A stretch of 64,000 nucleotides of DNA from Rugalucina vietnamica. Lineage: Eukaryota > Mollusca > Bivalvia > Lucinida > Lucinidae. Every line of letters begins with the position of its first letter. Within the stretch, counting starts at the first letter, position 1. A program made the position numbers and the translations under genes. The DNA lies in assembly GCA_964017185.1 (NCBI GenBank), contig OZ024876.1:13083726-13147725 (forward strand), in the 5' to 3' direction. The notes beneath the pieces are model-generated. The model did not search any database. It was not told where the DNA came from and worked only from the letters and a program-made list of their open reading frames with translations. This document shows, piece by piece, positions 6,614 through 63,112 of the stretch.

Positions 6614-6652
6614 GTTTAACAGCTCTTGAGAAGGCGCAGCAATGAAATCTTC

Positions 6653-6711
6653 AAGTTTAAATTACTTGGTTGTTTTTCGCTGTACCTGTCTAGTTACGCT
6701 AGGTCGTAACA
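6653..6711 (+). repeat. Inverted 59-bp copy of the LTR 3' end, replacing the 5' LTR
   Basis: This is the exact reverse complement of 717-775 (59 of 59 bases by eye). In the element's own - strand orientation, its 5' edge starts TGTTACGACC, an inverted LTR end, and runs straight into gag. The element therefore has two identical outward-facing U5-type ends, with no 5' LTR, no primer-binding site and no gag start. No 4-6 bp target duplication is visible: the flanks are CTAAC and GATGT. Confidence 0.85.
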
Positions 6712-15859: not shown

Positions 15860-15933
15860 ATGAAGAAAAACAAGTTTAATTTGCGACTGCCCACGCAGTC
15901 TGGCGAAGGCGATGGACAGGGTGATAATTCAGA
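15860..15933 (+). CDS. MAP2K1: MEK1/2 (MAP2K1/2) exon 1, N-terminus
   Basis: ATG at 15860 opens a peptide beginning MKKNKFNLRLP, closely like the start of Drosophila Dsor1 and, more loosely, vertebrate MEK1. The cluster of basic residues followed by hydrophobic-x-hydrophobic (FNL/LRL) fits a D-site that docks ERK. The exon ends TCAGA with a GTAAGT donor at 15934, in phase 2. Joining to exon 2 gives GAT (Asp) and keeps the frame open. The gene product is a dual-specificity kinase that phosphorylates ERK on Thr and Tyr in the cytoplasm. Intron 1 is about 12.9 kb and full of repeats. An upstream untranslated exon cannot be excluded. Confidence 0.8.
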
Positions 15934-20462: not shown

Positions 20463-22720
20463 TACTAAAATGCATACCTCTGAGCCCCTGATCTAAATAA
20501 AAGAGCCTTGAATTCTTCAGCAGTCTTTGATGAGACCACTAAAGAGGGAAGACTATTCCATAAAGGGGTAGTCATAGGGAAAAAAAAAGAATTCTTCAGA
20601 GCATCACTATAGGCCATAAATCTTTTGTATTGTGAATCATGAGATGCCCTGGTACTTCTTAAGTTGGGTGCTGGAGTCATATATCTATTTTTATCAAGAG
20701 ACACTGTACCGGAGTGAATCTTGTAAAAGAAAGTTGAGGAGGACTTCACCCTGCGGTCCTCGAGGGATGGCCACTCGAGTTTGTCCAACATATAATCAAT
20801 GCTACTCCTGTTCCACCATTGCCTGCAGGTCCACCTGGCTGCTGTCTTCTGCCCTTTCTCTACCTTTTTTTTGAGCTCACCTGAGCCTTAGGCTCACAAG
20901 GTGAGCTTATAGGATGGCCATGATCCGACGTCCGTCCGTCGTCCGTCTTCCGTCCTCCACAATTTCAAAGATCTTCTCTGAAACCACTTGGCCGATCAAG
21001 TTGAAATTTTTATGTTGAGCCTCATTGGGTAATGGCATTAATATTTTGTTCTTGATATCTTGGTCACATGACCAAGATGGCCGCCACGCCCATATATGGT
21101 AAAAACCCTTCAAAAATCTTCTTCTCCAGAACGGGCAGGCCAATTTTCACGAAACTTGATATGTAGCATTTGGGACTCCAGCCCATCATAGTTTGATCAA
21201 ATGATGATTGTAGGATGACCTTGACCTATATATTTTATGGCAAGGTCAATTTTGGAAACATAGGCTTTTACATGGGAAAAAGTGAAAACTATGGATTTTT
21301 TTGAAAACTATTGCAGCCTGAGACCTGAAAAGTGGTAGATGCAAACAACTAGTGGAGTAGATGACGGTATATGATTAATTTAGGTCAAGGTCATTTCTTG
21401 ACCTTGGCCAGTCTGTGGTCCATACACATTTCAAAGATCTTCTTCTCTGAAACTGCTTGGCCAGTCAAAGTGAAATTTTATGTGGAGCATCCATGGGTAG
21501 GGAAACGAAAGTTTGATAGCGAAATCCGGGTCACATGACCAAGATGGCCAGTATTGGCCACCATGCACATATATGGTAAAAACCACTCAAAAATCTTCTC
21601 CAGAACTGGCAGGCCAATTTTTAGAAACTTGGTATGTAGTATTTGGACTCCAGTCCATCATACTTTGTTCAAATGATGACCCTAGGATGACCTTGATCTA
21701 TTTTATGGCAAGGTCAATTTTGGAAAAGTAGATTATGGTTTTCTCAGAAATCACTGGGTTTCAATAAAGGTGTGTGAGTATTCAAGGTCAAGGTCATTTT
21801 ATGATGACTTAATGCTCCAAGATCAGGCTTCAGGTGAGCGTTCTCAGTCTGGTTTTATCTCAGTTTCATAATAGGGATGCCAAATAGGAGCTGCATACTT
21901 GAGTTGAGGACGAACCAATGTTTTGTATGCAACTTCCTTTGTATGCAGGGGTGCAAGAGCCAAATTGTGCCGAAGACAACCCAATGTCTTAGTTGCTTTA
22001 CAAGAAATTTCAGAAACAAGTTGACCCCATTCCAAGTTGTCAGTGATAGTAAGTCCAAGGTATTTGGCGGATCGAACCTGTTCCAGAGTTTGTTGATGTA
22101 GAGAGAAGTTGAAGTGTATTTGATTGCTAGGGAGGTGCCGGGTCACCCTCATTGAGTGACATTTGGCAATGTTGAATTTCATTTGCCAATCAGTCTCCCA
22201 TTGTACAAGGCTATTCAGGTCATCTTGTAGAATCTGACAATCAATGAGTGATTTGATGTTCCTGTATAAAACACAGTCCTCTGCAAAGAGACAAACAGAT
22301 GACCTGATAAGGCTGATATTGTCCGGAAGGTCGTTAATGAATATCAAGAAAAGGACCGGTCCCAAGACTGATCCTTGTGGGACTCCAGATAAGACCGGGA
22401 CTGGATCTGAGGCTTGGCCATCTAACACCACTTTTTGAAAGCGCTCAGAGAGCCATGAAGGGATGCACTTGTGAGTAGATCCTCTAATCCCATTATAATA
22501 GTGCAGTTTGTAAAGTAACCTCTTATGTGGTACCTTGTCAAAGGCAGTAGCGAAATCCTTGATGATCCCATCCATTTGTCTCATAATGACCCCGCCAGGT
22601 TACTAACCATGTCATGAAAGAACTGACCCAACTGGGTCTCACAAGACCTCTGACTACCGAAACCATGCTGACAGTCAGCAAGAATGTTTTCAATGGAAAG
22701 ATGCTTATTTATGTTGCTGA
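20463..22720 (-). pseudogene. Non-LTR retrotransposon RT (jockey/CR1-like), 5'-truncated, split by a Helentron-like element
   Basis: On the - strand, 21854-22720 encodes RT palm blocks: AFDKVPHKRLL, then SGVPQGSVLGPVLF and FINDLP, then FAEDCVLY. Thumb/connection sequence with KYLGLTITDNLEW follows. The frame then breaks at a 980-bp insertion and resumes at 20465-20873 with the typical C-terminus, including ALKNSFFPMTTPLWNSLP. The catalytic FADD box reads FAED, losing one metal-binding aspartate. A stop and frameshift occur near 22580. It is an inactive copy. Confidence 0.8.
20874..21853 (+). mobile_element. Helentron-like non-autonomous element, family P, copy 1
   Basis: It opens AGCTCACCTGAGCC, which folds with GGCTCACAAGGTGAGCT around a short loop, then a GTCC microsatellite and about two tandem core units. 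It ends with subterminal CAGGTGAGCG and CTGGT. The usual 3' hairpin has been deleted here. The flanking RT frame resumes exactly at A/A, meaning a TT target. Confidence 0.7.
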
Positions 22721-23399: not shown

Positions 23400-25378
23400 T
23401 AGCTCACCTGAGCCGTTAGGCTCACAAGGTGAGCTTATAGGATGGCCATGATCCGGCGTCCGTCCGTCGTCCGTCCGTCCGTCCACAATTTTAAAGATCT
23501 TCTTCTCTGAAATCGCTTGGCCAACCAAAGCCAAATTTTATATGAAGCATCTATAGGAAGGGGGAATCAATGTGTATATAAGAAATCCAGGTCACATGAC
23601 CAAGATGGCCGCCATGCCCATATATGGTAAAAACCCTTCAAAAATCTTCTTCTCCAGAACCGGTGGACTGATTTCAACGAAACTTGGCATGAAGCATTGA
23701 TGGCTCAAGCACTACAATGTGTATATACATGTAAATCATGACCCTGTGATGACCTTGACCTATTTTACGGCAAGGTCAACATAGGTCGCCAATGCATTTG
23801 AATGGGGAAAACTTTTAAAATGTCATTTAAAGTGAAAGTCTTGCAGGAAATGGGCAGTAGGACTGAATATTAATGATTCTGAATAAAATTGGACCCCAGG
23901 GGCTCATATGCCCCCACCCCGGGGCAGTATACATGTATATTACCATAATATTCAAACATCATCTCCTCTGAAACCGCTTGGCCAGTCAAAGCCAAATTTT
24001 ATGTGAAGCATCAATAGGAAGGGGTAATCAATGTGTATATAAATAATCCAGGTCACATGACCAAGATGGCCGCAATGCCCATATATATGGTAAAAACCCT
24101 TCAAATATCTTCTTCTCCAGAACCGGTGGATCGATTTCAAAGAAACTTGGCATGAAGCATCGATGGCTCAAGTACTACAATGTGTATATAAATCATGACC
24201 CTGTGATGACCTTGACCTTTTTTTTACGGCAAGGTCAACATAGGTCGCCAATGCATTTGAATAGGGAAAACTTTTAAAATGTCATTTAAAGTGAAAGTCT
24301 TGCAGGAAATGGGCAGTAGGACTGAATAGTAATGATTCTGAAAAAAAATGGACCCCAGGGGCTCATCTGCCCCCACCCCGGGGCAATATACATGTATATT
24401 ACCATAATATTCAAACATCTTCTTCTCTGAAACCGCTTGGCGAATCAAAGCCAAATTTTATGTGAAGCATCAATAGGAAGGGGTAATCAATGTGTATATA
24501 AATAATCCAGGTCACATGACCAAGATGGCCGCGATGCCCATATATGGTAAAAACCCTTCAAAAATCTTCTTCTCCAGAACCGGTGGATCGATTTCAAAGA
24601 AACTTGGCATGAAGCATCAATGGCTGAAGTACTACAATGTGTATATAAATTATGACCCTGTGGTGACCTTGACCTATTTTAGGACAAGGTCAACATAGGT
24701 CGCCAATGCATTGGAATGGGGAAAACTTTTAAAAAGTCATTTGAGGTGAAAATCTTGCAGGAAATGGGTAGTAGGACTAAATATTAATGATTCTGAAAAA
24801 AAAATGGACCTAAGGGCTCATATGCCCACACCCCGGGGCAATATACATGTATATTACCATAATATTCAAACATCTTCTCCTCTAAAACCACTTGGCCAAT
24901 TGAAGCCAAATTTTATGTGAATCATCTATAGGATGGGGGAACCAATGTATATATTAATAATCTAGGTCACATGACCAAGATGGCCGCCATGCCCATATAT
25001 GGTAAAAACCCTTCAAATATCTTCTTCTCTGAAACCAATAGATTGACTGCAATGAAACTTGGCGTGAAGCATCCATGGCTATAGTACTACAATGTATTTA
25101 TAAATCATGACCCTGTGATGACCTTGACCAAGTTTATGGCAAGGTCAACATGGGTTGCCCATGCATTTGAATGGGAAAAACTGTTAAAATGTCATTTGAA
25201 GGGAAAAGCCAGCAAGAAATTGGCAAATGGACAGAATATTGATTATTCTGAAAAAAGAAAACGGCCCAAGGGCTTCATCTGCCCCTGCACTGGGGTTAAA
25301 TACCATAATATTCAAACATGCTTATTGGTATATGCAGCAGACTCAGGTGAGCGTTTACAGGACCATTGGTCCTCTGGT
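23400..25378 (+). mobile_element. Helentron-like family P, copy 2, four core units
   Basis: The 5' hairpin AGCTCACCTGAGCC...GGCTCACAAGGTGAGCT precedes (GTCC)n at 23458-23485. Then come core units of about 458 bp, each with GGTCACATGACCAAGATGG (23590, 24051, 24510, 24965). The 3' end is CTCAGGTGAGCG, hairpin GGACCATTGGTCC and CTGGT. It is very similar to copy 3 at 51508. Short frames inside are not genes. Confidence 0.85.
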
Positions 25379-26594: not shown

Positions 26595-27250
26595 AAACAG
26601 ATTAATTAAATTGAGGCCTCCTACACCCTTGAGGGTACAATACTGGAAAATGTTGATAGTATTAAATATCTAGGTGTAACAATTACAAATGACTTGAAGT
26701 GGAATACCCATATTATAAATATCTGTACTAAAGCCAACAGAATACTTGGATCCTTGAAGACAAACTTATTTGCTTACCCCAAGATGTTAAAAAAGGACTG
26801 GGTGCACACAGTCCTGGAATATGGAAGTTCTGTTTGGGATCATCATACCAAAGGCCTCCAGGAGGAATTGGAGAAGGTACAGAATCGTGCTGCTAGATTT
26901 GTTACTAGGAATTATACTTTCGAGGAAGGAAGTATGACTGGCATTCTTGAACAACTCAAATGGGAATCTTTCAAGAAAAGGAGGACAGATAATCAACTTA
27001 TATTGCTATACAAAGGTCTGAAGGGTAAAGCCAGAATACCTACAAATGACCTTATCCCGAAGAATAGGCGTTGTAGAAATCAACACTCTATGGCATTGCA
27101 GATACCATCAGCTAGCAAAGAAGCGTACACAAGTAATTTCTTTCCAAAGACTATCAGGGACTGGAAATGACAGCCATGATTCTCTGATCTCCTCTGCTGA
27201 AATGTCTGATGACTGTATGTGCATTTTCACATCTCTTGTGAGAGGCAGGG
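26595..27250 (+). pseudogene. Non-LTR retrotransposon 3' end (jockey/CR1-like RT C-terminus)
   Basis: The + strand frame contains SIKYLGVTITNDLKW, a VLEYGSSVWDHH block, EKVQNRAARFV and FFPKTIRDWK, standard for the thumb and C-terminal part of jockey-type RTs. The catalytic palm is absent. A frameshift at 27165-27170 moves the last 30 residues (SSAEMSDDC, TSLVRGRD) to another frame. This is a dead fragment. Confidence 0.8.
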
Positions 27251-28867: not shown

Positions 28868-29087
28868 TAAGCCTAATCCCAACATAGAATCTCTAACACA
28901 AAAGCTGAAAGAACTGGACATAGATGACCAGCAGAGACAAAGGCTAGAACATTTCCTCACGCAGAAACAGACAGTTGGCGAGCTGACCGCAGATGTATTC
29001 GACAAGATCGGAGAACTGGGGGCTGGAAATGGTGGGGTGGTGATGAAGGTTCTCCACAGGACAACAGGCCTTGTAATGGCTAGGAAG
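28868..29087 (+). CDS. MAP2K1: MEK1/2 exon 2: export signal, N-lobe glycine loop
   Basis: Acceptor TTCTTCAG and donor GTAGGA. The first base completes Asp with exon 1, and the exon ends in phase 0. It encodes about 73 residues. [19 protein letters not shown] corresponds to the MEK nuclear export signal and negative regulatory helix. FLTQK.. follows, then [20 protein letters not shown] with the Gly-rich loop GAGNGG. The exon ends GLVMARK, whose Lys is the ATP-binding lysine (K97 of human MEK1). The match to animal MEK1/2 is unmistakable. Confidence 0.97.
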
Positions 29088-31383: not shown

Positions 31384-31530
31384 TTAATTCACTTGGAAAT
31401 CAAGCCAGCAATCAGAAATCAAATCATTCGTGAGTTGAAGGTATTACATGAGTGTAATTCTCCATACATTGTGGGGTTTTATGGAGCATTCTACAGTGAC
31501 GGGGAGATCAGCATATGTATGGAATATATG
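31384..31530 (+). CDS. MAP2K1: MEK1/2 exon 3: helix C and hinge
   Basis: Acceptor TTTCAG and donor GTAAAG, phase 0 to 0, 49 codons. It opens [18 protein letters not shown], continues with [20 protein letters not shown] and [10 protein letters not shown], and is nearly identical to animal MEKs. It carries the helix C glutamate (in REL) that pairs with the ATP-binding lysine, and the M-E-Y-M hinge. The human MEK1b splice form lacks this exon's equivalent; skipping here would also keep frame. Confidence 0.97.
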
Positions 31531-32239: not shown

Positions 32240-32317
32240 GATGGTGGTTCATTAGATTTGATCTTAAAGAAGGCTGGGAGGATACCAGAACCCATACTCG
32301 GCAAAATATCTGAGGCT
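32240..32317 (+). CDS. MAP2K1: MEK1/2 exon 4
   Basis: Acceptor TTACAG and donor GTAAGT, phase 0 to 0, 26 codons. It encodes [20 protein letters not shown] and GKISEA, continuing the hinge (MEYM-DGGSLD) and the start of the C-lobe. This matches Dsor1/MEK position by position. D-x-x-S of this block lies at the rim of the ATP pocket. No lesions. Confidence 0.97.
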
Positions 32318-32645: not shown

Positions 32646-32697
32646 GTTCTTAAAGGACTTATCTACTTGCGAGAAAAACATTCAATCATGCACAGAG
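32646..32697 (+). CDS. MAP2K1: MEK1/2 exon 5
   Basis: Acceptor TTTCAG and donor GTAAGC. It encodes VLKGLIYLREKHSIMHR and the first base of the Asp codon, so the catalytic HRD motif is split across the exon 5/6 border (HR|D). Phase 0 to 1, 52 bp. Exon 6 must supply AT to give the catalytic aspartate, and every decoy acceptor upstream of exon 6 also begins ATG and restores the same aspartate. Confidence 0.97.
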
Positions 32698-35400: not shown

Positions 35401-36269
<869 letters not shown>

Positions 36270-37064: not shown

Positions 37065-37254
37065 CCAGAGAGATTGCAGGGCACACACTACTCAGTACAG
37101 TCAGACATCTGGAGTGTAGGGCTTTCATTGGTTGAAATGGCCATAGGGCGGTACCCAATCCCGCCCCCGGACCCAGGAGATGTGAATAGTATTTTTGGTG
37201 CCAACGTTATGGAAGAACATCTTGATGCAGCCAAGACAGGGAAACCACTCAAAG
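37065..37254 (+). CDS. MAP2K1: MEK1/2 exon 7: APE-region to insert
   Basis: Acceptor ATCCACAG and donor GTTAGC, phase 0 to 1. It encodes [20 protein letters not shown], then [20 protein letters not shown] and a divergent tail [23 protein letters not shown]. The P-E-R is the MEK version of the APE motif, and SDIWS is the conserved helix F region. The tail enters the variable proline-rich insert of MEK1/2, which binds RAF and scaffolds in vertebrates. The last G begins a glycine codon completed by either exon 8. Confidence 0.97.
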
Positions 37255-39396: not shown

Positions 39397-39628
39397 ATGA
39401 GCCACTGCATTAGAAACCAACAATTTGCATAGGCGAAAACAAAGCCGCAGATCAGCTGTGCAGTAACTGCACAGCTGATCAGCGCCTTTGTTTTCGCTGC
39501 TGGGTAGTACAATCTTCTTCTAAAATCCAAAATTTCAAGCTTCTAGCCTGCTTCTGTGGCTGTACAGGCGGGTTTGTGTCAGACCTGGTTGGAAACCAAA
39601 TTGTTGGTTTTCTCATGCACAGGCTCAT
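39397..39628 (+). mobile_element. MITE A, copy 9
   Basis: ATGAGCCACTGCATTAGAAA left end; palindrome around GTGCAGTAACTGCAC; right end TTGTTGGTTTTCTCATGCAC. Confidence 0.85.
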
Positions 39629-39630
39629 AT

Positions 39631-40105
39631 ATGAGCGGCATCATGGGAAAACTAGAATTTTGCATATGTGAAAACAAAAGAGCAGACCAGATATGCAATA
39701 AATGCACAGCTGATCTGCACCTTTGTTTTCGCTTCACAGACAAAACATTCTTCTTGTTAAATCTTGAGTTAAATCCAGGGGCCAGTTGTTCAAAACTAAC
39801 GACGTCGTTAGTTAACGTTTCGTTAAAATTTCAAACATTAATATTACAAATACACTGTCATTTTTTGTTGAAAAAATGTGAGAATCCTTTGCACTGCAAA
39901 GGATTCTCACATTTTTTCAAAAAAAAAATAACAGTGTATTTGTTACTTTAGCTGATATTTGCATAACAAACTTATGTCTTAACGATATCGTTAAGCTAAC
40001 GATGCTTTGAACAACTGGGTCCTGAATTTCAAGCTTCTAGCCTTCCTCTGTGGCTGTTTAGTTTGAATTGTGTCAGACCTGGTCAAAAACCTCGATGTGG
40101 CTCAT
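39631..40105 (+). mobile_element. MITE A, copy 10, split by another MITE
   Basis: Adjacent to copy 9. Left half 39631-39774 and right half 40025-40105 flank a separate TIR unit. It ends 35 bases before the exon 8a acceptor. Confidence 0.75.
39775..40024. mobile_element. Palindromic MITE nested in MITE A copy 10
   Basis: Ends CAGGGGCCAGTTGTTCAAA and TTTGAACAACTGGGTCCTG are inverse. Inside, GAGAATCCTTTGCA/TGCAAAGGATTCTC forms a hairpin, and ACGTCGTTAG / CGATATCGTTAAG palindromes flank it. Confidence 0.7.
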
Positions 40106-40140: not shown

Positions 40141-40226
40141 GTTGCCTTGGAGATTTTCAGGTTGTTAGTGGTGATGGGCCTTTGCCCATGGCTATATTTG
40201 AACTCCTTGAATATATTGTTAATGAG
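40141..40226 (+). CDS. MAP2K1: MEK1/2 exon 8a (alternative): short insert, PMAIFELLEYIVNE
   Basis: Acceptor GTAATTTCAG (40140) and donor GTAAAA. With the G of exon 7 it encodes G, then CLGDFQVVSGDGPLPMAIFE and LLEYIVNE. The last 14 residues are the conserved MEK helix that follows the proline-rich insert. A nearer AG at 40160 would give an immediate stop, so 40141 is the right border. The length is 86 bp (2 mod 3). Exon 8b covers the same segment with the same phases. It has no Ser/Thr-Pro site. Confidence 0.85.
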
Positions 40227-41279
40227 GTAAAAGATGGAGGACTTATGATTTTACAATTTTTACCAGTCATTTTCCATTGATTAGCTCCTTTTTGTTGCAT
40301 ATTTTGAGAACAACACCAAAATTTAATCCATGCATATATAACCAAAATAGGTAAGATGTGTTTTATGTTTGAATGAGCCACACTGGGACACCGTTGCAAA
40401 ATCTATATGGAAGTAAACATAATATACACTGATTGGCCTGGGCTTAAGCTTGGTCTAATCAGAAATTTTGGCTTCTTTATATCATGAAACAAAAGAAATA
40501 AAAAAAAAAAAAAATCGTTTGATTGATTTCTTTAACTTCTCGAAAGAAATCTTTTGATTCTACCTCGTTTATAACAAAACTCGCTGTGTAGTGAAAAGGA
40601 AGAAACATTTTAATTTTTTGGACATCATATGGAAACATTTGCATGTGCCAAGATACCCTATATTTTGCAAGCTTTAGCTGTTTGCCTATACAAATCCAGT
40701 ATACCTTTGCATGGCATATGGCTAGTGACCAATAATGCAAGCTTGCAGCAAAGAATAGAGCATTTGATAAGTATTTAACAGTCAGTCATCAGGCAAATGC
40801 ATGAGACATTCATCTTTATAAACTTGATTCATACAAAAGGGAGCTAATTCTATGTATTTTAATTGCTTAAGTTTTTTGCAGCATGATGTTTTTGTAAAAT
40901 CAATTTAAAATTATATTATGGTTATATGAGCCTCATTATAAAAATTCCCTGCCTTTTTGCATTCCGGTATATGACAAACAATTGATTTTCTACATAGATA
41001 CATGTACATGTACATCCCTCTTCCTAAAGTAGACATTTCATTGCCTCAATACAACTCTGTCTGTAAAGACCTGTTTGTAAGAGTTTCATAGTGTCACCTA
41101 TGAATAAAGGGTATTTTAAATGATGAGGCTCATATTAGTGCTCTAAGTCAGATGGTATATAACTTCTCTTTTAATTCATAATACCTGGGTTTGGTCCATA
41201 AAATGTGTATCACAAAAATGTCTTTTACCAACAACACAAAAATTTCTTTGGTTGTGGTCAGTATACTGGTAAGATCTAA
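40227..41279. other. Intron between 8a and MITE A copy 11, no gene seen
   Basis: AT-rich with an A16 tract near 40500. No repeat recognised. Confidence 0.4.
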
Positions 41280-41519
41280 ATGAGCCTTCGTACGGGAAAA
41301 CCAACAATTTGGGATGCCTACCAGGTCCGACACAAACCAGCCTGTACAGCTACAGAAGCAAGCTAGAAGCTTGAAATTTTGGATTTAACAAGGGGAGTGA
41401 TTGTACTATCTGTATAGCGAAAACAAAGGTGCTGAACAGCTTCACGGTTACCACGAAGCTGGTCTGCGCCTTTGTTTTCGCATATGCATCTATTGCTGGT
41501 TTTCTTATGCAGTGGCTCA
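41280..41519 (-). mobile_element. MITE A, copy 11
   Basis: TGAGCCTTCGTACGGGAAAA left end; inverted GACACAAACCAGCCTGTACA arm; palindrome; right end TTTTCTTATGCAGTGGCTCA. Confidence 0.8.
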
Positions 41520-42179
41520 AATATTTTCTCTGTACTAACAGATTCTGATGACATTCAGTGAAACCATTTTTATTTTGGACCTGCAACTTGTAAACAGAAC
41601 TTACAATACTTCGGAAGAAAATTCTAGTAGGGGTGGGGAGGGGCCAGGGAATAAATATGGAACTTGACCCTCTGACTTGGGTTTCAAAATGGTAAAATGC
41701 TGTGTGCAGTGTCTTCCAAATTATATACACATATCTTTGTCTACAGATCTGCCTCCCAAAATCATGTGTCAAATACTGTGTGTTACTTCATCAAATACTG
41801 TGTACCTTGTCTTCAAAAGTTGTGTTTTGTCATCAATTCATGTGTTCTATGTCATCAGGTTTTGTACTTTAGTCCTGGAAGCTATGGCTGGCTAGCTTGC
41901 CTCTAGAATGACATAAACATATGGATTAACCATTACAATGGGGACAGTTGATGACATTAATGTTGTTTAGCAACATTATGATTGGATGCATACTTTCAAT
42001 TCAGAGTAAGCTACCTTTTTAAAGTGAAATGAGTTAAATTCTGAAAATTTCAGCATCTTAGAATGATTGCATCCTAAATAAGAAAAATTGTGCTTGCAGA
42101 AAAAAGGGGAACACATCACAAAAACATGCCTGTGCACAAATACAAAATAATTTTTCAGCTAGGAAAACTGATAATTCTC
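41520..42179. other. Intron, no gene seen
   Basis: Repeated TCATCAAATACTGTGT and TGTGTTCTATGTCATCA phrases at 41760-41860 look like a weak tandem repeat. No coding feature. Confidence 0.4.
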
Positions 42180-43625
42180 AATTGAGAAACCCGAGCCAGC
42201 GTCCATCTGTCCGTCCGCCAGTCTGTTAGTCTGTCTGTTCACACTTTCAAAAATGTATATCTTGGAGACGAGCTGGCTTAGGTTTTAATGCAGGTAGGAT
42301 CAGAACTCTGGTTTCCATGGCAAAAGATAGCATTCATAGTGTTATAATGGGTAAAACCTTGTCAACACTCTTACCCCTACATTTTTTATCAGAACTTCTT
42401 CATTCTTGCAGGCAAAAATAACAACCATAATATCTCAGATGGCTCTGAATTTTGTCCAGATCACGGACTAGCTGCCTCTGAGCATTTTGAAAAATTCCAT
42501 AGACTTATAATGGGGAAAATGGTGTCAGCACATTTTCTCTGCTACAAATCTTTTTCATACTTGCTGGTATCAATGACAACCACAATATTTCAAGATGAGT
42601 TTGAATTTCGACCAGATCCCTTTGCTGATTGCGGAGTTAGCTGCCCTTGATAGTTTGAAAAATTGATATTTGGTGTTTTCAACTCTAGCGCTTTTATTTT
42701 TGATTGGATCTTCACCATTCTTTGTAGTAGAGATGAATAATAAAATCTTGGAAGAGTTCAAAATTGGACCATATCCCATGAATGATAGCGGAGTTAGCCG
42801 CCCTTAAATATCTGAAAATTTCATATTTAGTGTCGTCAACACACTCAGATCAGATCTTCATTATTCTTCACAGTAACAAGGACAACCATAATATTCGGAT
42901 GAGTTTGAATTTCGACCAGATCCCACCACTGATTTTTGAGTTGGATGTTCTTGAATGTTTGAAATTGATGTTTAGTGTTGTCAACACTCAACCACTTTCA
43001 TTGTTTATCTGATCTTCATCATTCTTCACAGTAACAAGGACAACTATTAAATCTCTGACGAGTTTGAAATTCAACCAGATCCCATGAATGATTGCAGAGA
43101 AAGCTGCCCTTGAATGTCCAAAAAATAAACATTTAGTGTTGTAGCCGTCTAGCACCATTATTTTTGATCGGATCTTCATATTCTTCACGATAAAAAGGAC
43201 AACCATATCTCGGATGAGTTTGAATTTCGGCCAGATCCCACTACTGATTGTGGAGTTAGCTGCCCTTGAATGTTTAAAAAAAATGATATTCAGTGTTGTC
43301 AACACTATAGCGCCTTCATTTTTTATCTGATTTTCATCATTCTTCAAAATTCGGCCAGATCACATGAATGATTGCAGAGTTAGCTTCAATCTGAAAAAAA
43401 AAAAAAAGATATTTAGTGTGATCAATACTCCAGTCCCTTTAGTTTTGATTGGATCTTCTTCATTCTTGTTGGCAGAAACATGGAAAACCATAATACATTG
43501 CATGAGTTCAAATTTGGCCAGATTCAACCTTAGACTGTGTCTGAAAAAATGCCCATGGAGTTAGAATGGCAACATGTTTTTAGAACACTAGTAGTTCAAT
43601 TTGTTGGTTCTCAGATGAGCGATTG
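42180..43625 (+). mobile_element. Tandem-core element related to family P
   Basis: It opens at palindrome TTCTCAATTGAGAA, then CCGAGCCAGCG and (GTCC/GTCT)n. About eight units of roughly 140 bp follow, with GGATCTTCAT.ATTCTT, GAGTTTGAATTTCG.CCAGATC and GTGTTGTCAACACT. It closes near TTCTCAGATGAGCGATTGTTGCC. Frames across units are artefacts of the repeat. Confidence 0.65.
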
Positions 43626-43644
43626 TTGCCCTTTGTTTGCTTGA

Positions 43645-43800
43645 AACATAGATTGTGGGTACACGTTAGAACTGTCTATTTTTTGAAGCAAAAGAAAGAA
43701 AAATGTATACACCTGTATGCCCCAGTTTTACTACATTAAATTGGGGTATAAGTGGGTTTATATTTCACTGACATTTTATATTAATGTAACAAAAATACAC
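43645..43800 (+). mobile_element. Repeat E, copy 4
   Basis: ACATAGATTGTGGGTACACG..TAGAAC and CCCCAGTTTTACTACATTAA..TGGGGTATAAG, the family E blocks. Confidence 0.55.
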
Positions 43801-43914
43801 TATTCATGCAGTTTTGTAAGTTGGTGCATTGACTGTCCCTTGCTGTTATGGTTTTTGAAATTTTGCCTATTTGTATTGATGATTCTGTTGCAGTTTTGTT
43901 GTTTGCTTTTGTAG

Positions 43915-44018
43915 GAACAAATCGGAATAGTTATAATTTTCCTACGCCACCTGCAGTCGGCATTGATGGGCCTCGCCCTATGGCCATTTTTGAGCTTTTA
44001 GATTTCATTGTGAATGAG
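43915..44018 (+). CDS. MAP2K1: MEK1/2 exon 8b (alternative): longer insert with Thr-Pro, PMAIFELLDFIVNE
   Basis: Acceptor TTTTGTAG and donor GTATGT. With the G of exon 7 it encodes G, then TNRNSYNFPTPPAVGIDGPR and PMAIFELLDFIVNE. It is 104 bp (2 mod 3), the same phase as exon 8a; including both would shift the frame. The insert is longer and proline-rich. It contains a Thr-Pro, placed like the ERK feedback threonine (T292) region of human MEK1, right after a YNFP string. This version looks more like canonical MEK1/2 than 8a does. Confidence 0.93.
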
Positions 44019-44633: not shown

Positions 44634-46642
44634 TATACCCCCCGCAAAACGAAGTTTTAGGGGTGTATACTGTTTTCAGTCTGTCCGTAATTCCGTGATT
44701 CCGTCATTCCGTGATTCCGTCATTCCGTCAACATTTTGACATCTTTGCTGAATAACTTAAGTAGTTTTTGCCCGATGTTCTTCAAATTTTCAACACACCT
44801 GCACCATTAGACAACACATGTGTGATATGAATTTAGGGGCCAAAGGGTCAGTTTTGCAAGAGTTATGGGACTTTTTAAACCTATACATAGAATGTTTGCC
44901 ATAGTGCTAATAGTGCATACTTTGTGAAATCAACTCCTCCTACAGCTTTCAATATTCTCTTTTGATACTTTGCAGATATGTGCCAGAGATATTGAAGGTA
45001 TGCATGAAGAAGTATTATGCTGAAAAAATGAATTTTGACAAATTTACGGCATTTTGAACTTAGCCAATTTTCGATAATTGCCATATTCAATAATGGTTGG
45101 TAGTGCATAGTTTGTGAAATCAACTCCTCCTAGGGCTTTCAGTATTTCTTTTCAATACTTTGCAGACATGTTCCACACATATTGAAGATGTGCATGAAGA
45201 ATTATAATGCTGAAAAAATAATTTTTGACAAATTTACAGCATTTTTTAACATAGCCATTTTTTGACCATTGCTTAAACAATAATGGTTGGTAGTGCATAT
45301 TTTGTGAAATCAACTCCTCCTAGGGCTTTCAGTATTTCTTTTCAATACTTTGCAGATATGTTCCACACGTAATGAAGATGTGCATGAAGAATTATAATGC
45401 TGAAAACATAAAATTTTTGACAAATTTACAGCATTTTTCAACATAGCCATTTTTTGACCATTGCTTATATACAATAATGATTGGTAGTTCATAGTTTGTG
45501 AAATCAACTCCTCCTAGGGCTTTCAGTATTTCTTTTCAATACTTTGCAGACATGTTCAACACATATTGAAGATGTGCATGAAGAATTATAATGCTGAAAA
45601 AATAATTTTTGACAAATTTACAGCATTTTTTAACATAGCCATTTTTTGACCATTGCTTAAACAATAATGGTTGGTAGTGCATATTTTGTGAAATCAACTC
45701 CTCCTAGGGCTTTCAGTATTTCTTTTCAATACTTTGCAGATATGTTCCACACGTAATGAAGATGTGCATGAAGAATTATAATGCTGAAAAAATAATTTTT
45801 GACAAATTTACAGCATTTTTCAACATAGCCATTTTTTGACCATTACTTATATACAAAAATGGTTGGTAGTGCACATTTTGTGAAATCAACTCCTCCAAGG
45901 GCTTTCAGTATTTCTTTTTGATACTTTTCAGACATGTTCCTCACATATTGAAGATGTGCATGAAGAATTATAATACTGAAAAAATAATTTTTGACAAATT
46001 TACAGCATTTTTTAACATAGCCATTTTTTGACCATTGCTTTTATACAATGATGGTTTGTGAAATCAACTCCTCCTGGGGCTTTCAGTATTTCTTTTCAAT
46101 ACTTTGCAGACATGTTCCACACATATTGAAGATGTGCATGAATAATTATAATACTGAAAAAGTGATATTTGACAAATTTACATCATTTTTCAACATAGCC
46201 ATTTCTTGACCATTGCTTATATACAATAATGGTTGGTAGTGCATACTTTGTGAAATCAACTCCTCCTAGGGCTTTCAATGTTTCTTTAAGATTCTTTGTA
46301 GATTTGTTCCAGATATATTTTAGATGTGCATGAATAATTTTCATGCTGAAAATTTAATTTTTGACAAACTTACAGCTTTTATTTAACTTAGCCAATTTTT
46401 ACCATTTCTCATGATAAACAATGATCATAGTGCATACAGTGAAATCAACCTCAAGCTTTCAATATATTCTTTTAATATCTTATAGATGTGACTGGCATAC
46501 TGGGGATGTACATGAAGGATTATAATGCTGAAAAGATATCTTTGACAAATTTTTTGCATGTTTGACTTAGGAAGTTATTGGCCAGCTTCAGATAATTTTG
46601 CGGGGGGTATACTGAAAGCCTTGCTTGCAGCCAATTTCTAGT
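44634..46642 (+). mobile_element. Helentron-like family Q, copy 1
   Basis: The 5' hairpin TATACCCCCCGCAAAAC-GAA-GTTTTAGGGGTGTATA precedes a (TTCCGTGA/TTCCGTCA)n tract. About eight core units of roughly 190 bp share TGTGAAATCAACTCCTCC and AAGATGTGCATGAAGAATTA. Subterminal TTTTGCGGGGGGTATA inverts the 5' end and it terminates at ATTTCTAGT. Confidence 0.85.
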
Positions 46643-47946: not shown

Positions 47947-49793
47947 TATACCCCCCGCAAAACGAAGTTTTAGGGGGGTATACTGTTTTCAGCCTGTCCG
48001 TCATTCCGTCATTCTGTCATTCCGTCATTCCGTGATTCCGTGACTCCGTGATTCCGTCATTCCGTCATTCCGTCAACATTTGGACATCTTTGCTGAATAA
48101 CTTGAGTAGCTTTTGCCTGATTTGTTTCAAATTTTTACCACACTTGCATCATCAGACAATACATGTGTGGTATGAATTTAGGGGCCAAAGGGTAAGTATT
48201 GCAAGAGTTATGGGACTTTTTAAGTCTTCCTTTAACATGTTTGCCATAGTACTGAAAGTACATACTTTGTGAAATCAACTCCTCTTACATCTTTCAATGT
48301 TTCATTTTAATATTTTGCTGATATGTTTCAGATATATTGCAGATGTGCATGAACAATTGTCATGCTGAAAAAAATCATTTTTGACAAATTTACAGCATTT
48401 TTAACTTAGCAAATTTTCTATAATTGCTTATATTCAATAATGGTTGGTAGTGCATATTTTGTGAAATCAACTCCTCCTAGGGCTTTCAGTGTTTCTTTTC
48501 AGTACTTTGCAGACATGTTACAGACATATTGAAGATGTGCATGAAGAATTATAATGCTGAAAAAAATAATTTTTGACAAATTTACAGCATTTTTTAACTT
48601 TGCCATTTTTCGACTATTTCTTACATACATACTTTGTGAAATCAACTCCTCCTAGGGCTTTCAGTATTTCTTTTCAGTACTTTGCAGACATGTTACAGAC
48701 ATATTGAAGATGTGCATGAAGAATTATAATGCTGAAAAAATAATTTTTGACAAATTTACAGCATTTTTTAACTTGGCCATTTTTCGACTATTGCTTACAT
48801 ACATACTTTGTGAAATCAACTCCTCCTAGGGCTTTCAGTATTTCTTTTCAGTACTTTGCAGACATGTTACAGACATATTGAAGATGTGCATGAAGAATTA
48901 TAATGCTGAAAAAATAATTTTTGACAAATTTACAGCATTTTTTAACTTAGCCATTTTTCGACTATTGCTTACATACAATAATGGTTGGTAGTGCATACTT
49001 TGTGAAATCAACTCCTCCTAGGGCTTTCATTGTTTCTTTTTAATTCTTTGCAGATTTGTTCCAGATATATTGAAGATGTGCATGAAGAATTTTTATGCTG
49101 AAAATTTTAGTTTTGACAAATTTACAGCTTTTTAAACTTAGCCAATTTTGACCATTTCTGCTTATATTCAATTATGGTTGATAGTACATACTTTGTGAAA
49201 TCCAACTCCTCCTGGGGCTTTCAGTAATTCTTTTCAATACTTTGCAGACATGTTACAGACATATTTAAGATGTGCATAAAGAATTTTATTGGTGAAAAAA
49301 TAATTTTTGACAAATTTACAGCATTTTTCAACTTAGACATATTCCAACCATCGCTAATATACAATACGGCTGGTAGTGCATACTTAATGAAATCAAGTCC
49401 TAGTGCTTTCATTGTTTCATTTGAATTCTTTGCACACTTGTTCCAGATATATTTCAGATGTGCATGAATAATTCTTATGCTGAATAATTTATTTTTGACA
49501 AATTTACAGCTTTTTTTTAGCATAGCCAATTTTTGACCATTTCTCATGATAAATAATGATCAACAGTGTACAGTGAAATCAACAATTATTTTACTCCCTG
49601 AGCTTTCAGTATATTATTTAATACCTTACAGACATGAGTCAGACATACGGAGGATTTTCATGAAGGATTATAATGCTGAAAAGATATTTTTGAAAAATTT
49701 TCTGCATGTTTGACTTAAAGGCCTTTAAGTTATTGGCCTTAGATAATTTTGCGGGGGGTATACTGAAAGCCTTGCTTGCAGCCAATTTCTAGT
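47947..49793 (+). mobile_element. Helentron-like family Q, copy 2
   Basis: Same 5' hairpin with GAA loop, ATTCCGTC repeats, about seven core units, and GCGGGGGGTATACTGAAAGC to ATTTCTAGT at the 3' end, as in copy 1. Confidence 0.85.
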
Positions 49794-51507: not shown

Positions 51508-53458
51508 AGCTCACCTGAGCATTTAGGCTCACAAGGTGAGCTTATAGGATGGCCATGATCCGGCGTCCGTCCGTCCGTCCGTCCACAATTTCAAAGATCT
51601 TCTTCTCTGAAACCGCTTGGCCAACCAAAGCCAAATTTTATATGAAGCATCTATAAAATTATATGAAGGGGGAACCAATGTGTATATAAGAAATCCAGGT
51701 CACATGACCAAGATGGCCACCATGCCCATATATGGTAAAAACCCTTCAAAAATCTTCTTCTCCAGAACCGGTGGACTGATTTCAACGAAACTTGGCATGA
51801 AGCATTGATGGCTCAAGCACTACAATGTATATATAAATCATGACCCTGTGATGACCTTGACCTATTTTACGGCAAGGTCAACATAGGTCGCCAAAACATT
51901 TGAATGGGGAAAACTTTTAAAATGTCATTTAAATTGAAAGTCTTGCAGGAAATGGGCAGTAGGACTGAATATTAATGATTCTGAAAAAAATTGGACACCA
52001 GGGGCTTATATGCCCCCACCCGGGGCAATATACATGTATATTACCATAATATTCAAACATCATCTCCTATGAAACCGGTTGGCCAATCAAAGCCAAATTT
52101 TATGTGAAGCATCAATAGGAAGGGGTAATCAATGTATATATAAATAATCCAGGTCACATGACCAAGATGGCCGCAATGCCCATATATGGTAAAAACCCTT
52201 CAAAAATCTTCTTCTCCAGAACCAGTGGATCGATTTCAAAGAAACTTGGCATGAAGCATCGAAGGCTAAAGTACTACAATGTATATATAAATCATGACCC
52301 TGTGATGACCTCGACCTTTTTTTACGGCAAGGTCAACATAGGTCGCCAATGCATTTGAAAAGGGAAAACTTTTAAAATGTCATTTAAAGTGAAAGTCTTG
52401 CAGGAAATGGGCAGTAGGACTGAATATTAATGATTCTGATAAAAAAATAGACCCCAGGGGCCCCGGGGCATTATGTATATTACCATAATATTCAAACATC
52501 TTCTCCTCTGAAACCGCTTGGCGAATCAAAGCCAAATTTTATGTGAAGCATCTATGGAATGGGGGAATTAATGTATATATAAATTATCCAGTTCACATGA
52601 CCAAGATGGCTGCCATGCCCATATATGGTGAAAACCCTTCAAAAATCTTCTTCTCCAAATCTGATGGTTCGATTTCAAAGAAACTTGGCATGAAGCACCA
52701 AAGGCTGAAGTACTACAATGTGTATATAAATCATGACCCTGTGGTCACCTTGACCTATTTTACGACAAGGTCAACATAGATCGCCAATGCATTGGAATGG
52801 GGAAAACTTTTAAAAAGTCATTTGAGGTGAAAATCTTGCAGGAAATGGGTAGTATGACTAAATATTAATGATTCTGAAAAAAAAAAACGGACCCAAGGGC
52901 TCATATGCCCACACCACGGGGCAATATACATAAATATTACCATAATATTCAAACATCTTCTCCTCTAAAACCACTTGGCCAATGGAAGCCAAATTTTATG
53001 AGAAGCATCTATAGGATGCGGGAACCAATGTATATATTAATAATCTAGGTCACATGACCAAGATGGCCACCATGCCCATATATGGTAAAAACCCTTCAAA
53101 TATCTTCTCTGAAACCAATAGATTGATTTCAGTGAAACTTGGCGTGAAGCATCTATGGCTATAGTACTACAATGTATATATAAATCATGACCCTGTGATG
53201 ACCTTGACCAAGTTTATGGCAAGGTCAACATGGGTTGCCCATGCATTTGAATGGGAAAAACTGTTAAAATGTCATTAGAAGGGAAAAGCCAGCAAGAAAT
53301 TGGCAAATGGACAGAATATTGATTATTCTGAAAAAAGAAAACGGCCCAAGGGCTTCATCTGCCCCTGCACTGGGGTTAAATATCATAATATTCAAACATG
53401 TTTATTGGTATATGCAGCAGACTCAGGTGAGCGTTAACAGGACCATTGGTCCTCTGGT
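51508..53458 (+). mobile_element. Helentron-like family P, copy 3, four core units
   Basis: Near duplicate of copy 2 (23400-25378), with the same unit order and the same end variants, including TATGCAGCAGACTCAGGTGA and GGACCATTGGTCCTCTGGT. An internal 13-base duplication ATAAAATTATATG lies at 51651. Core units sit at 51698, 52154, 52594 and 53047. Confidence 0.85.
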
Positions 53459-59625: not shown

Positions 59626-62600
59626 AGCTCACCTGAGCCGAAGGCTCACAAGGTGAGCTTATAGGATGGCCATGATCCGGCGTCCGTCCGTCCGTCGTCC
59701 GTCCGTCCGTCGGCGTCCACAATTTCAAAGATCTTCTTCTCTGAAACCGCTTGGCCGATCTTGTTGAAATTTTATGTGGAGCCTCCTTGGGTAGTGGCAT
59801 TTCAAGTTTGATCGCGAAATCTAGGTCACATGACCAAGATGGCCGCCACGCCCATATATGGTAAAAACCACTCAAAAATCTTCTTCTCCAGAACCGGTGG
59901 GCCGATTTCCATGAAACTTGGTATGTAGCATTGGGGACCTCAGCCCATCATAGTTTGATAAAATGATGACCCTTGGCTGACCTTGACCTATTTTACGGCA
60001 AGGTCAAATTTGGAAACATAGGCTTTTACATAGGAAAAAGTGAAAACTATGGAATTTTTTTAAATCTGTTGCAGCCTGAGGCCTGAAAAGTGGTAGATGC
60101 AAACAACTAATGGAGTAGATGAAGGTATGTGATTAATATTGGTCAAGGTCATCTCTTGACCTTGGCCAGTCTGTTGTCCATACAAACTTTTCAAAGATCT
60201 TCTTCTCTGAAACTGCTTGGCCAATCAAAGTGAAATTTTATGTGGAGCATCCATGGGTAGGGGAGACGAAAGTTTGATCGCGAAATCCAGGTCACATGAC
60301 CAAGATGGCTGCCACGCCCATATATGGTAAAAACCACTCAAAAATCTTCTTCTCCAGAACCGGTGGGCCGATTTCCACGAAACTTGGTATGTAGCATTGA
60401 GGACCTCAGCCTATCGTAGTTTGATAAAATGATGACCCTTGGATGACCTTGACCTATTTTACGGCAAGGTCAAATTTGGAAACATAGGCTTTTACATAGG
60501 AAAAAGTGAAAACTATGGATTTTTGGAAACTATTGCAGCCTGAGGCCTGAAAATTGGTAGATGCAAACAACTAATGGAGTAGATGAAGGTATGTGATTAA
60601 TATAGGTCAAGGTCATCTCTTGACCTTGGCCAGTGTGTTGTCCTTACACACTTTTCAAAGATCTTCTCTGAAACTGCGCGGCCAATCAAAGTGAAATTTT
60701 ATGTGGAGCATCCATGTGTAGGGGAGACGAAAGTTTGATTCCGAAATCCAGGTCACATGACCAAGATGGCCGCCATGCCCATATATGGTAAAAACCACTC
60801 AAAAATCTTCTTCTCCAGAACCGGTGGGCCGATTTCCACGAAACTTGGTATGTAGCATTGGGGACCTCAGCCCATCATAGTTTGATAAAATGATGACCCT
60901 TGGATGACCTTGACCTATTTTACGGCAAGGTCAAATTTGGAAACATAGGCTTTTACATAGGAAGAAGTGAAAACTATGGATTTTTAGCTCACCTGAGCCG
61001 AAGGCTCACAAGGTGAGCTTATAGGATGGCCATGATCCGGCGTCCGTCGTCCGTTGTCCGTCCGTCGGCGTCCACAATTTCAAAGATCTTCTTCTCTGAA
61101 ACCGCTTGGCCGAACTAGTTGAAATTTTATGTGGAGCCTCTTTGGGTAGTGGCATTTCAAGTTTGATTGCGAAATCCAGGTCACATGACCAAGATGGCCG
61201 CCAAGCCTATATATGGTAAAAACACTTCAAAAATCTTCTTCTCCAGAACCGGTGGGCTGATTACCACGAAACTTGGTATGTAGCATCGGGGACTTCAGCC
61301 CATCATAGTTTGATCAAATGATGACCCTTGGATGACCTTGACCTATTTTACGGCAAGGTCAAATTTGCAAACATAGGCTTTTACATGGGAAAAAGTGAAA
61401 ACTATGGATTTTTTTAAAACTATTGCAGCCTGAGGCCTGAAAAGTGGTAGATGCAAACAACTAATGGAGTAGATGAAGGTATGTGATTAATTTAGGTCAA
61501 GGTCATCTCTTGACCTTGGCCAGTCTGTCGTCCATACACACTTTTCAAAGATCTTCTTCTCTGAAACTGCTTGGTCAATCAAAGTGAAATTTTATGTGGA
61601 GCATCCATGGGTAGGGGAGATGAAAGTTTGATTGCGAAATCCAGGTCACATGACCAAGATGGCCGCCACGCCCATATATGGTAAAAACCACTCAAAAATC
61701 TTCTTCTCCAGAACCAGCTGGCCGATTTTCATGAAACTTGGTATGCAGCATTTGGGACTCCAGCCCATCATAGTTTGATCAAATGATGACCCTAGGATGA
61801 CCTTGACCTATTTTACGGCAAGGTCAATTTTGGAAACATAGGCTTTTACATGGGAAAAAGTGAAAACTATGGATTTTTTGAAAACTATTGCAGCCTGAGG
61901 CCTGAAAAGTGGTAGATGCAAACAACCAATGGAGTAGATGAAGGTATGTGATTAATTTAGGTCAAGGTCATCTCTTGACCTTGGCCTGTCTGTCGTCCAT
62001 ACACACTTTTCAAAGATCTTCTTCTCTGAAACTGCTTGGCCAATCAAAGTGAAATTTTATGTGGAGCATCCATGGGTAGGGGAGACGAAAGTTTGATTGC
62101 GAAATCCAGGTCACATGACCAAGATGGCCGCCACGCCCATATATGGTAAAAACCACTCAAAAATCTTCTTCTCCAGAACCGGCAAGCCGATTTTCATGAA
62201 ACTTGGTATGTAGCATTTGGGACTCCAGCCCATCATAGTTTGATCAAATGATGACCATAGGATGACCTTGACCTATTTTACGGCAATGTCAATTTTGGAA
62301 ACATAGGCTTTTACATGAGAAAAGTTAAAACTATGGATTTTTTGAAAACTGTTGCAGCCTGAGACCTGAAAAGTGGTAAACAACTAATGGAGTAGATGAA
62401 GGTATGTGAATGATTTAGGTCAAGGTCATCTGTTGACCTTGGCCAGTCTGTCGTCCATACACACTTTTCAAAGATCTTCTTCTCTAAACCTGCTTGGCCA
62501 ATCAAAGTGAAATTTTATGTGAAGCGTCCATGGGTAGGGGGAATGAAAGTTTGTTCGCGAAATTCGGGTCACATGACCAAGATGGCCGCCATGCCCAACT

Positions 62601-63112
62601 ATGGTAAAAAACACTCAAAAATCTTCTTCTCCAGAACTGGCTGGTCGATTTACGAGAAATTTGTTATGTAGCATTTTGGACTCCAGCCCATCAGATGACC
62701 CTAGGATGACCTTGACCTATTTTACGGCAAGGTCAATTTTGTAAACATCGGCTTTTACAAGGGAAAAGGAGAAAACAATGAATATTTTGGAAACTGTTGC
62801 AGCCTGCAACCTGAAAGTTGCTAGATGCAGACAACTAATGGAGTCAATGAAGGTAAGTAATTAATGAAGGCCAAGGTCATTTCTTGACCTTGACCCAAGG
62901 TCATTTAAATATCAAAATTAAAATTATGGTTTTCTCAGAAATCACTGGGTTTGGAAACTATTGCAGCCTGAGACCTGAAACTTTGCAGATGCAGACAACT
63001 TATGAAGTCAATAAAGGTGTGTGAGTATTCAAGGTCAAAGTCATTTCATGATGACTTAATACTCCAAGATCAGGCTTCAGGTGAGCGTTCTCAGGACCAA
63101 TGGTCCTCTGGT
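59626..63112 (+). mobile_element. Helentron-like family P, copy 4, with a nested second 5' end
   Basis: 5' hairpin and GTCC tract at 59626. Core units recur about every 461 bp (59816, 60282, 60744). A second complete 5' end follows at 60986, then units at 61175, 61636, 62102 and 62562. The 3' end is CTTCAGGTGAGCG, hairpin AGGACCAATGGTCCT and CTGGT. Core units carry CCATATATGG and TGACCTTGACC. Not coding. Confidence 0.85.

What the first reader, a model, noticed from the sequence alone, without database searches (positions are those of the whole stretch)
40141..44018. Two interchangeable versions of one MEK exon (8a/8b), apparently mutually exclusive
Seen: 40141-40226 and 43915-44018 both encode a variable stretch followed by PMAIFELL(E/D)(Y/F)IVNE. 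Each has its own AG acceptor and GT donor, both start in phase 1 and end in phase 0, and both are 2 mod 3 long (86 and 104). Using either keeps the frame to exon 9; using both, or neither, breaks it. Both frames are intact and the conserved part is preserved with synonymous divergence, so neither looks dead. Known: this is the helix after the proline-rich insert of MEK1/2. Inference: the gene makes two MEK isoforms differing only in the insert. I do not recall such a pair being described for MEK in molluscs, but could not search.
Basis: partly seen in the sequence, partly recalled or inferred. Interest (0 to 1): 0.88.

Follow-up and report, generated by a model that had tools for sequence, protein, structure and literature searches.

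The report
Swappable exon pair in bivalve MEK
A bivalve's single gene for the signalling enzyme MEK carries two alternative versions of one exon that cannot be used together without breaking the protein, and matching versions are found in other molluscs, ringed worms and some related phyla, so it looks like an old splice switch that gives one gene two MEK enzymes.

Summary
40141-40226 (8a, 86 nt) and 43915-44018 (8b, 104 nt) are homologous, correctly bounded exons of a MAP2K1 (MEK) gene, phase 1 in and phase 0 out. I completed the gene: exon 1 at 15860-15933, exons 10 and 11 at 3.6 and 4.7 kb beyond the window. Either exon alone gives an intact MEK (391 or 397 aa). Both, or neither, gives a stop 125 or 88 nt before the last junction, a predicted decay target.

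8a is neither dead nor young. Of 155 retrieved proteins 23 carry an 8a-type segment, from 21 named species (bivalves, gastropods, annelids, a nemertean, a brachiopod). Mya and Babylonia each have one record per type, identical outside this stretch. A tree groups the 8a forms (99/95; 81/83 without the classifying columns). Transcript-size contigs 97-99% identical to the window's protein carry 8b; I saw no 8a transcript from this species or its nearest relatives, and no RNA reads were available.

Exclusive exons are a known kind, and databases already list these isoforms; seven searches listed no paper on the pair. Likely function (inferred): 8b keeps a variable, phosphorylatable insert; 8a replaces it with a fixed, conserved one.

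The parts
15860..15933 (+). MEK exon 1, coding part from ATG (74 nt, ends phase 2)
   Evidence: tblastn with the N-terminus of P0007, 96% over 25 aa (the last codon is split by the donor); GTAAGT follows
28868..29087 (+). MEK exon 2
   Evidence: tblastn to human MEK1, AG/GT borders, open joined frame
31384..31530 (+). MEK exon 3
32240..32317 (+). MEK exon 4
32646..32697 (+). MEK exon 5
36133..36257 (+). MEK exon 6 (DFG and activation loop)
37065..37254 (+). MEK exon 7, ends phase 1 (GKPLK G|)
40141..40226 (+). alternative exon 8a, 86 nt: CLGDFQVVSGDGPLPMAIFELLEYIVNE
   Evidence: own AG and GT, phase 1 to 0; matching segment in 21 named species
43915..44018 (+). alternative exon 8b, 104 nt: TNRNSYNFPTPPAVGIDGPRPMAIFELLDFIVNE
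   Evidence: own AG and GT, phase 1 to 0; present in transcript-size contigs P0007, P0013, P0014
56905..56966 (+). MEK exon 9 (62 nt, ends phase 2); exons 10 and 11 lie beyond the window, in L009 at 4337-4382 and from 5410

Best explanation
The gene is the MEK1/2 orthologue of a bivalve (closest named record Ruditapes), apparently single-copy. Its exon 8 was duplicated in tandem, most likely in an ancestor of molluscs, annelids, nemerteans and brachiopods. The downstream copy, 8b, keeps the type shared with other animals; the upstream copy, 8a, diverged and then became strongly conserved. Splicing joins exon 7 to one copy and that copy to exon 9. Exclusivity is enforced at least by frame: neither exon length is a multiple of 3, so transcripts with both or none should be removed by nonsense-mediated decay. 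The two MEK proteins share the rest of the kinase and differ in the end of the regulatory insert and in the helix after it. Inferred function: 8b supplies a variable insert with a basic-x-Ser motif (and Thr/Ser-Pro in 7 of 9 bivalve rows), comparable to the PAK- and ERK-regulated insert of mammalian MEK1. 8a replaces it with a short conserved segment (C[PL]G-x-F-[QE]-V-x-x-G-[DE]-G in most examples) that lacks those sites, giving a MEK with different feedback, scaffold or docking behaviour. Shown here: exon anatomy, frame logic, conservation, both isoform types among annotated proteins. Inferred: decay of the wrong products, regulated choice, functional difference. The confidence given is for the exclusive exon pair; for the functional difference along these lines I would give about 0.35.
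For: Anatomy and frame. Copy number: in the assembly the 7 matches of 74-96% identity lie in this locus, the other 61 of 68 listed matches are 60% or less (125 of 202 candidates were scored). 8a and 8b in one species with identical flanks: Mya X2/X1 share 299 N-terminal and 68 C-terminal residues; Babylonia X1/X2 share 297 and 74, X1 with 16 extra residues before the 8a segment. Same order 8a then 8b: Lamellibrachia P0017 and Dimorphilus P0057 models hold both motifs in that order; Mactra P0033 reads 8a and then what looks like 8b in the wrong frame, as predicted for double inclusion. One group for the 22 8a rows of the tree, 99/95, and 81/83 with the two classifying columns blanked. 8a is 28 residues in 10 of the 14 8a proteins measured (11 if Mya is counted from its split codon), whereas 8b runs from 29 to 37. 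Purifying selection between 8a and 8b. Basic residue within 3 before a Ser in 22 of 27 lophotrochozoan 8b rows against 3 of 22 8a rows; [ST]P in 8 of 27 against 0 of 22. Insert function in mammals: T292, S298 (PMC5075022, passages), AKT binding (PMC5320536, passages).
Against: No RNA reads were available. The transcript-size contigs nearest to this species (P0007, P0013, P0014, P0018) all carry 8b, and only one unnamed transcript-size contig with 8a was seen (P0024). The protein database is clustered at 90%, which can hide either isoform, and only 120 of 251 and 120 of 209 hits were listed. Only 8b was seen for Octopus, Argonauta, Patella, Lottia, Liolophura, Pomacea, Physella, Biomphalaria, Candidula, Nucella, Argopecten, Ruditapes, Sinanodonta, Tegillarca, Solemya, Pinctada, Mytilus coruscus, Owenia and Arenicola; whether 8a is absent there was not tested. 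Gigantopelta, Lineus and Elysia 8a deviate in length. Basic-x-Ser is missing in 5 of 27 8b rows and Thr/Ser-Pro in 19 of 27, so the phospho-switch reading is not uniform. The exon-8 trees rest on 38-39 columns.
Confidence: 0.88

Rival explanations
1. 8a is a decaying duplicate or pseudo-exon that is no longer spliced in.
For: No 8a transcript of this species or its nearest relatives was seen. The 8a acceptor has fewer pyrimidines than 8b (10 against 13 of 17).
Against: Intact borders and frame; omega about 0.02; the best one-lineage-neutral model tried is about 9 lnL units worse. The 28-residue 8a versions of other molluscs and annelids are 20-25 of 28 identical. Predicted U1 pairing of the 8a donor equals that of 8b.
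Confidence: 0.03
2. 8a works mainly as a poison exon: joint 8a+8b inclusion yields decaying transcripts that set MEK level, and the 8a protein matters little.
For: Joint inclusion gives an early stop with two junctions downstream of exon 8b. The Mactra model P0033 is such a product.
Against: A poison exon needs no conserved protein sequence, yet 8a is conserved in amino acids over phyla, and complete 8a isoforms are annotated in many species.
Confidence: 0.06
3. The exon was duplicated independently in several phyla and the 8a-like forms converged.
For: Support falls to 81/83, and to 77% of bootstrap trees with one change, when the two classifying columns are blanked. Independent origin of exclusive exons in molluscs, annelids and helminths is on record for mrp-1 (stated in PMC7434440, passages).
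Against: Shared CPG-x-F-[EQ]-V-like insert and order 8a-8b in annelids and molluscs; 98% of bootstrap trees with one change in the full analysis.
Confidence: 0.08
4. Mutual exclusion is enforced by long-range RNA pairing (docking and selector sites) in addition to frame.
For: Among 15 pairs of 400-nt intron pieces, three reached z of -2.8 to -3.4.
Against: Only 15 shuffles per pair, no correction for 15 pairs, repeats and hairpins near 8a, no second genome for covariation: inconclusive.
Confidence: 0.15

Closest known systems
JNK (MAPK8/MAPK9) alternative exons 6a/6b (review PMC8699841, passages)
   Same: MAPK-cascade kinase gene; alternative forms of one exon, with altered substrate binding reported in the review's table.
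   Different: Different tier and gene of the cascade, mammalian; that exon 6 lies at another place in the kinase domain (recalled).
MEK1b splice form of human MAP2K1 (PMC8699841, passages)
   Same: Alternative splicing of the same orthologous gene that changes MEK specificity.
   Different: MEK1b is a deletion of 26 residues in subdomain 5, not a choice between two homologous exons.
MEK1/MEK2 gene pair of mammals (PMC5075022, PMC8699841, passages)
   Same: Two MEK proteins that differ, among other places, in the proline-rich insert; only MEK1 has the T292 feedback site.
   Different: Two genes, against one gene with two exons here; the sites are not positionally homologous.
coq-2 exclusive exons of helminths, annelids and molluscs (PMC7434440, passages)
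   Same: Exclusive homologous exon pair found in molluscs and annelids, not in human or mouse, with a biochemical role shown in C. elegans.
   Different: Metabolic enzyme; exons of equal length.
Human tandem duplicated exon substitutions such as FYN (PMC9741552, start of abstract and passages)
   Same: Tandem homologous exons in a kinase, one used at a time; most such events are described as ancient.
   Different: Human genes; words beginning MAP2K or MEK do not occur in the main text.

Membership tests
Mutually exclusive tandem homologous exons | Two adjacent exons of common origin in one gene | tested here: met
   15 of 18 core residues identical, blastn match of the cores E 1.2e-4, same gene, 3688 nt apart
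Mutually exclusive tandem homologous exons | Each has its own acceptor and donor with the same phases | tested here: met
   AG/GT, phase 1 in and 0 out for both
Mutually exclusive tandem homologous exons | Inclusion of both or none is non-productive | tested here: met
   In silico only: stops 125 and 88 nt before the last junction
Mutually exclusive tandem homologous exons | Transcripts contain one or the other, not both | tested here: inconclusive
   Annotated isoforms in Mya and Babylonia have one each; Mactra, Lamellibrachia and Dimorphilus gene models hold both; no reads available
Mutually exclusive tandem homologous exons | Regulated (tissue- or stage-specific) choice | not testable with these tools
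   No expression data
MEK1/2 (MAP2K1/2) orthologue | Kinase domain with the glycine loop, HRD, DFG and the MEK activation loop SMANSFVGT | tested here: met
   Joined exons; Pfam PF00069 E 5.6e-58; motif names recalled
MEK1/2 (MAP2K1/2) orthologue | Insert after the kinase core followed by the PMAIFELL helix | tested here: met
Mammalian-type regulated insert (T292/S298) | Thr-Pro feedback site and basic-directed Ser in the insert | tested here: inconclusive
   Similar motifs in window 8b (RNS, TPP), not in homologous positions and not in all relatives; no [ST]P in 22 8a rows

The most novel reading that the evidence does not exclude
A splice switch that arose in the ancestor of molluscs, annelids, nemerteans and brachiopods lets one MEK gene make two enzymes: a feedback- and PAK-regulated 8b form and an 8a form uncoupled from that control, with its own conserved docking segment. 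It would parallel, inside one gene, what vertebrates did by duplicating MEK into MEK1 and MEK2.
Probability: 0.27. Interest if true: 0.8.

Novelty: new member of a known kind. Interest (0 to 1): 0.6.

Why it matters
MEK is the step through which growth-factor signals reach ERK. A choice of exon placed at its regulatory insert, and conserved in several phyla, would mean that ERK signalling in molluscs and annelids can run through two MEK forms from one gene, so that work which treats oyster or snail MEK as one protein would need to be read again. It also offers a natural experiment on what the MEK insert does, a question that in mammals is put by comparing MEK1 with MEK2.

Tried and rejected
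Chance match: rejected, since the motif occurs only at these two places in six frames of 64 kb and each is bounded by matching splice sites. Third copy in the 12.9-kb intron 8b-9: none seen with human MEK1 by tblastn or with the motif. Recent duplication: rejected, the flanks (1.5 kb each side) do not align beyond the exon core and the donor's first bases. Steric exclusion by a very short intron: rejected, the exons lie 3688 nt apart. Incompatible splice-site classes: every intron border examined in this gene is GT-AG. A strong default exon from splice-site strength: predicted U1 pairing is equal for both donors and only the pyrimidine count differs. Long-range RNA pairing: inconclusive. RNA families at gathering scores and tRNAs in the window: none. 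My first search for exon 1 and exons 10/11 with human-like fragments found none; P0007's own sequence found exon 1 and, beyond the window, exons 10 and 11. Structure prediction of the Mya 8a and 8b proteins (alignments A1, A2) never started because the queue was full. A whole-genome DNA search for further 8a copies did not complete. The species was not identified.

Results against the phospho-switch reading: Thr/Ser-Pro is absent in 19 of 27 8b rows; the basic-x-Ser motif is absent in 5 of 27 (Physella, Biomphalaria, Arion, Candidula and the Lamellibrachia model).
Full report
What is there. The window holds most of a MAP2K1 (MEK1/2) gene on the + strand. tblastn with human MEK1 located exons 2 to 9. 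All have AG acceptors and GT donors and join into one open frame. The N-terminus of P0007, a transcript-size contig (1408 bp) from an unnamed source, placed exon 1 at 15860-15933. The window is G000:C8:13083726-13147725 in a 1.09-Gb assembly of 47 contigs. Exons 10 and 11 lie 3.6 and 4.7 kb past its end, in L009 at 4337-4382 and from 5410. The full product is 391 aa with 8a and 397 aa with 8b. The 8b product differs from P0007 at 4 of 397 residues, so P0007 is from the same or a close species; P0013 and P0014 differ at 13 and 12. The closest named record is Ruditapes, 295 of 327. Of 68 matches listed in the assembly, the 7 in this locus have 74-96% identity and the other 61 have 60% or less (125 of 202 candidates scored), so the gene appears to be single.

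The pair. 8a (40141-40226) and 8b (43915-44018) have their own borders, both start in phase 1 and end in phase 0, and both are 2 mod 3. With both exons the frame stops inside 8b, 125 nt before the last junction; with neither it stops in exon 9, 88 nt before it. By the usual 50-55 nt rule (recalled) both are decay targets. The 18-codon core has 8 identical codons, 7 synonymous differences and 3 amino-acid differences. On a codon model with fixed kappa 2, assumed base frequencies and a coarse grid, omega is best near 0.02 (lnL -106.5) against -119.1 for omega 1; letting one lineage be neutral for the same time gives at best about -115.5 among the settings tried. This is one short pair, so the numbers are rough. 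Outside the exon core the two 1.5-kb flanks do not align, which fits an old duplication.

Relatives. Three protein searches returned 251, 209 and 14 hits, of which 120, 120 and 14 were listed; the listed ones are P0001-P0155. 23 of the 155 carry the 8a-type signature (recounted): 21 named species, a second Saccostrea record (P0011) and one unnamed transcript-size contig (P0024). The species are Saccostrea, Ostrea, Crassostrea, Dreissena, three Mytilus, Mya, Mactra and Mercenaria (bivalves); Arion, Aplysia, Babylonia, Gigantopelta and Elysia (gastropods); Lamellibrachia, Ridgeia, Dimorphilus and Capitella (annelids); Lineus (nemertean); Lingula (brachiopod). Many are NCBI models called isoform X2 or the like. 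Such models normally rest on RNA alignments (general knowledge, not checked). Mya X1 and X2 share 299 residues before and 68 after this stretch and carry 8b and 8a. Babylonia X1 and X2 share 297 and 74, but X1 also has 16 extra residues before its 8a segment. The two Arion records differ at 12 of the first 280 residues, so they may be two genes rather than isoforms.

Gene models that show the order. The Mactra model P0033 reads 8a and then a stretch that resembles the window's 8b in the wrong frame, and ends: the double-inclusion product predicted from the window. The Lamellibrachia and Dimorphilus models hold an 8a motif, other (probably intronic) residues, then an 8b-type motif. So 8a lies upstream of 8b in annelids too. 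I take these three as annotation errors; they could also be real joint-inclusion transcripts.

Age. A tree of exon-8 segments from 52 of the 155 proteins, chosen by hand (two of them with two segments each), the two window exons and human MEK1 (57 rows, 39 columns) puts the 22 8a rows on one side of a branch, 99/95, with one change in 98% of bootstrap trees. The rows were classified by two core columns. With those blanked the split stays but support falls to 81/83 and 77%. 8a records P0008 and P0011 were left out of the tree. 8b shares its core type (DGPRP...LLD or close) with the single exon-8 stretch seen in arthropods, human and other animals. I therefore read 8b as the ancestral form and 8a as a copy gained before molluscs, annelids, nemerteans and brachiopods parted. 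Only 8b was seen in Octopus, Argonauta, Patella, Lottia, Liolophura, Pomacea, Physella, Biomphalaria, Candidula, Nucella, Argopecten, Ruditapes, Sinanodonta, Tegillarca, Solemya, Pinctada, Mytilus coruscus, Owenia and Arenicola; absence of 8a there was not tested, and 90% clustering can hide isoforms.

What differs. 8a is 28 residues in 10 of the 14 8a proteins measured (11 with Mya counted from its split codon); the others are P0011 (6 more), P0012 (16 more) and Elysia P0026 (5 fewer). Identity to the window's 8a is 20-25 of 28 over the 28-residue versions. 8b is 29-37 residues and variable. A basic residue within three before a Ser occurs in 22 of 27 lophotrochozoan 8b rows and 3 of 22 8a rows; the scanned stretch includes some exon-7 residues, and for Mya the hit lies in residues shared by both isoforms. 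[ST]P occurs in 8 of 27 (7 of the 9 bivalve rows, and Octopus) and 0 of 22. In mammals the insert carries T292 (ERK feedback; no equivalent in MEK2) and S298 (PAK) (PMC5075022, passages). It is reported to bind MP1 and AKT, the latter under S298 control (PMC5320536, passages). The mollusc motifs are not in homologous positions, so similarity of function is an inference. The helix after the insert, which in MEK faces RAF/KSR (recalled), differs by E/D and Y/F in the window.

Mechanism. Frame-locking is sufficient for exclusive protein output. The 3688-nt spacing speaks against steric exclusion. Donor pairing to U1 is equal (-6.9 kcal/mol each); the 8a acceptor has 10 pyrimidines of 17 against 13 for 8b. 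RNA pairing between introns is inconclusive.

What is known. A review of MAPK splicing gives MEK1b as the spliced form of MEK1, and JNK exon 6a/6b choices (PMC8699841, passages). Seven of my ten literature searches were aimed at this pair (they listed 20 of 43, 1 of 1, 15 of 978, 4 of 4, 15 of 364, 12 of 18 and 2 of 2 papers); none of the listed titles or abstract starts describes it. The other three were for background. I opened only the passages cited. The library lacks most subscription papers, so a description in print is not excluded. The isoforms themselves already stand in public protein databases.

Verdict. A real, ancient, frame-locked pair of alternative exons; a new member of a known kind, in an unexpected gene and place and of great age. 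The functional reading is open and testable.

Noticed in passing
35406-36142: The acceptor and first bases of MEK exon 6 (TTCYTTATAGATGTAAAACC, up to 3 mismatches) occur six more times upstream of the true exon 6 at 36133, in or next to a tandem array, against 0 expected by chance. Four of the six keep TAG before ATG and could be decoy 3' splice sites.
   Followed up: partly
1607-6661 (-): One 1684-aa open frame that reads like the gag-pol of an LTR (Ty3/gypsy-like) retrotransposon, upstream of the MEK gene (named from recalled motifs, no family search).
   Followed up: no
21844-22599 (-) and 26610-27170 (+): Fragments resembling reverse transcriptases of non-LTR elements in MEK intron 1 (named from recalled motifs).
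   Followed up: no
23493-25256, 51583-53336, 59723-62892: Tandem arrays with units of 454-465 bp that begin alike, at three places; a different 190/384-bp array fills parts of the 8b-9 intron at 44911-46552 and 48257-49541.
   Followed up: no
39414-39927: Palindromic hairpin-like repeats 0.2-0.7 kb upstream of exon 8a.
   Followed up: no
P0012 (Babylonia areolata X1): The 8a isoform carries 16 extra residues that begin CPGGIDVL, like a second partial 8a start, before the usual CPGAPEVV.
   Followed up: no
P0011 (Saccostrea X1) versus P0001 (X3): Six extra residues before the 8a segment, as if a second acceptor of 8a were used.
   Followed up: no
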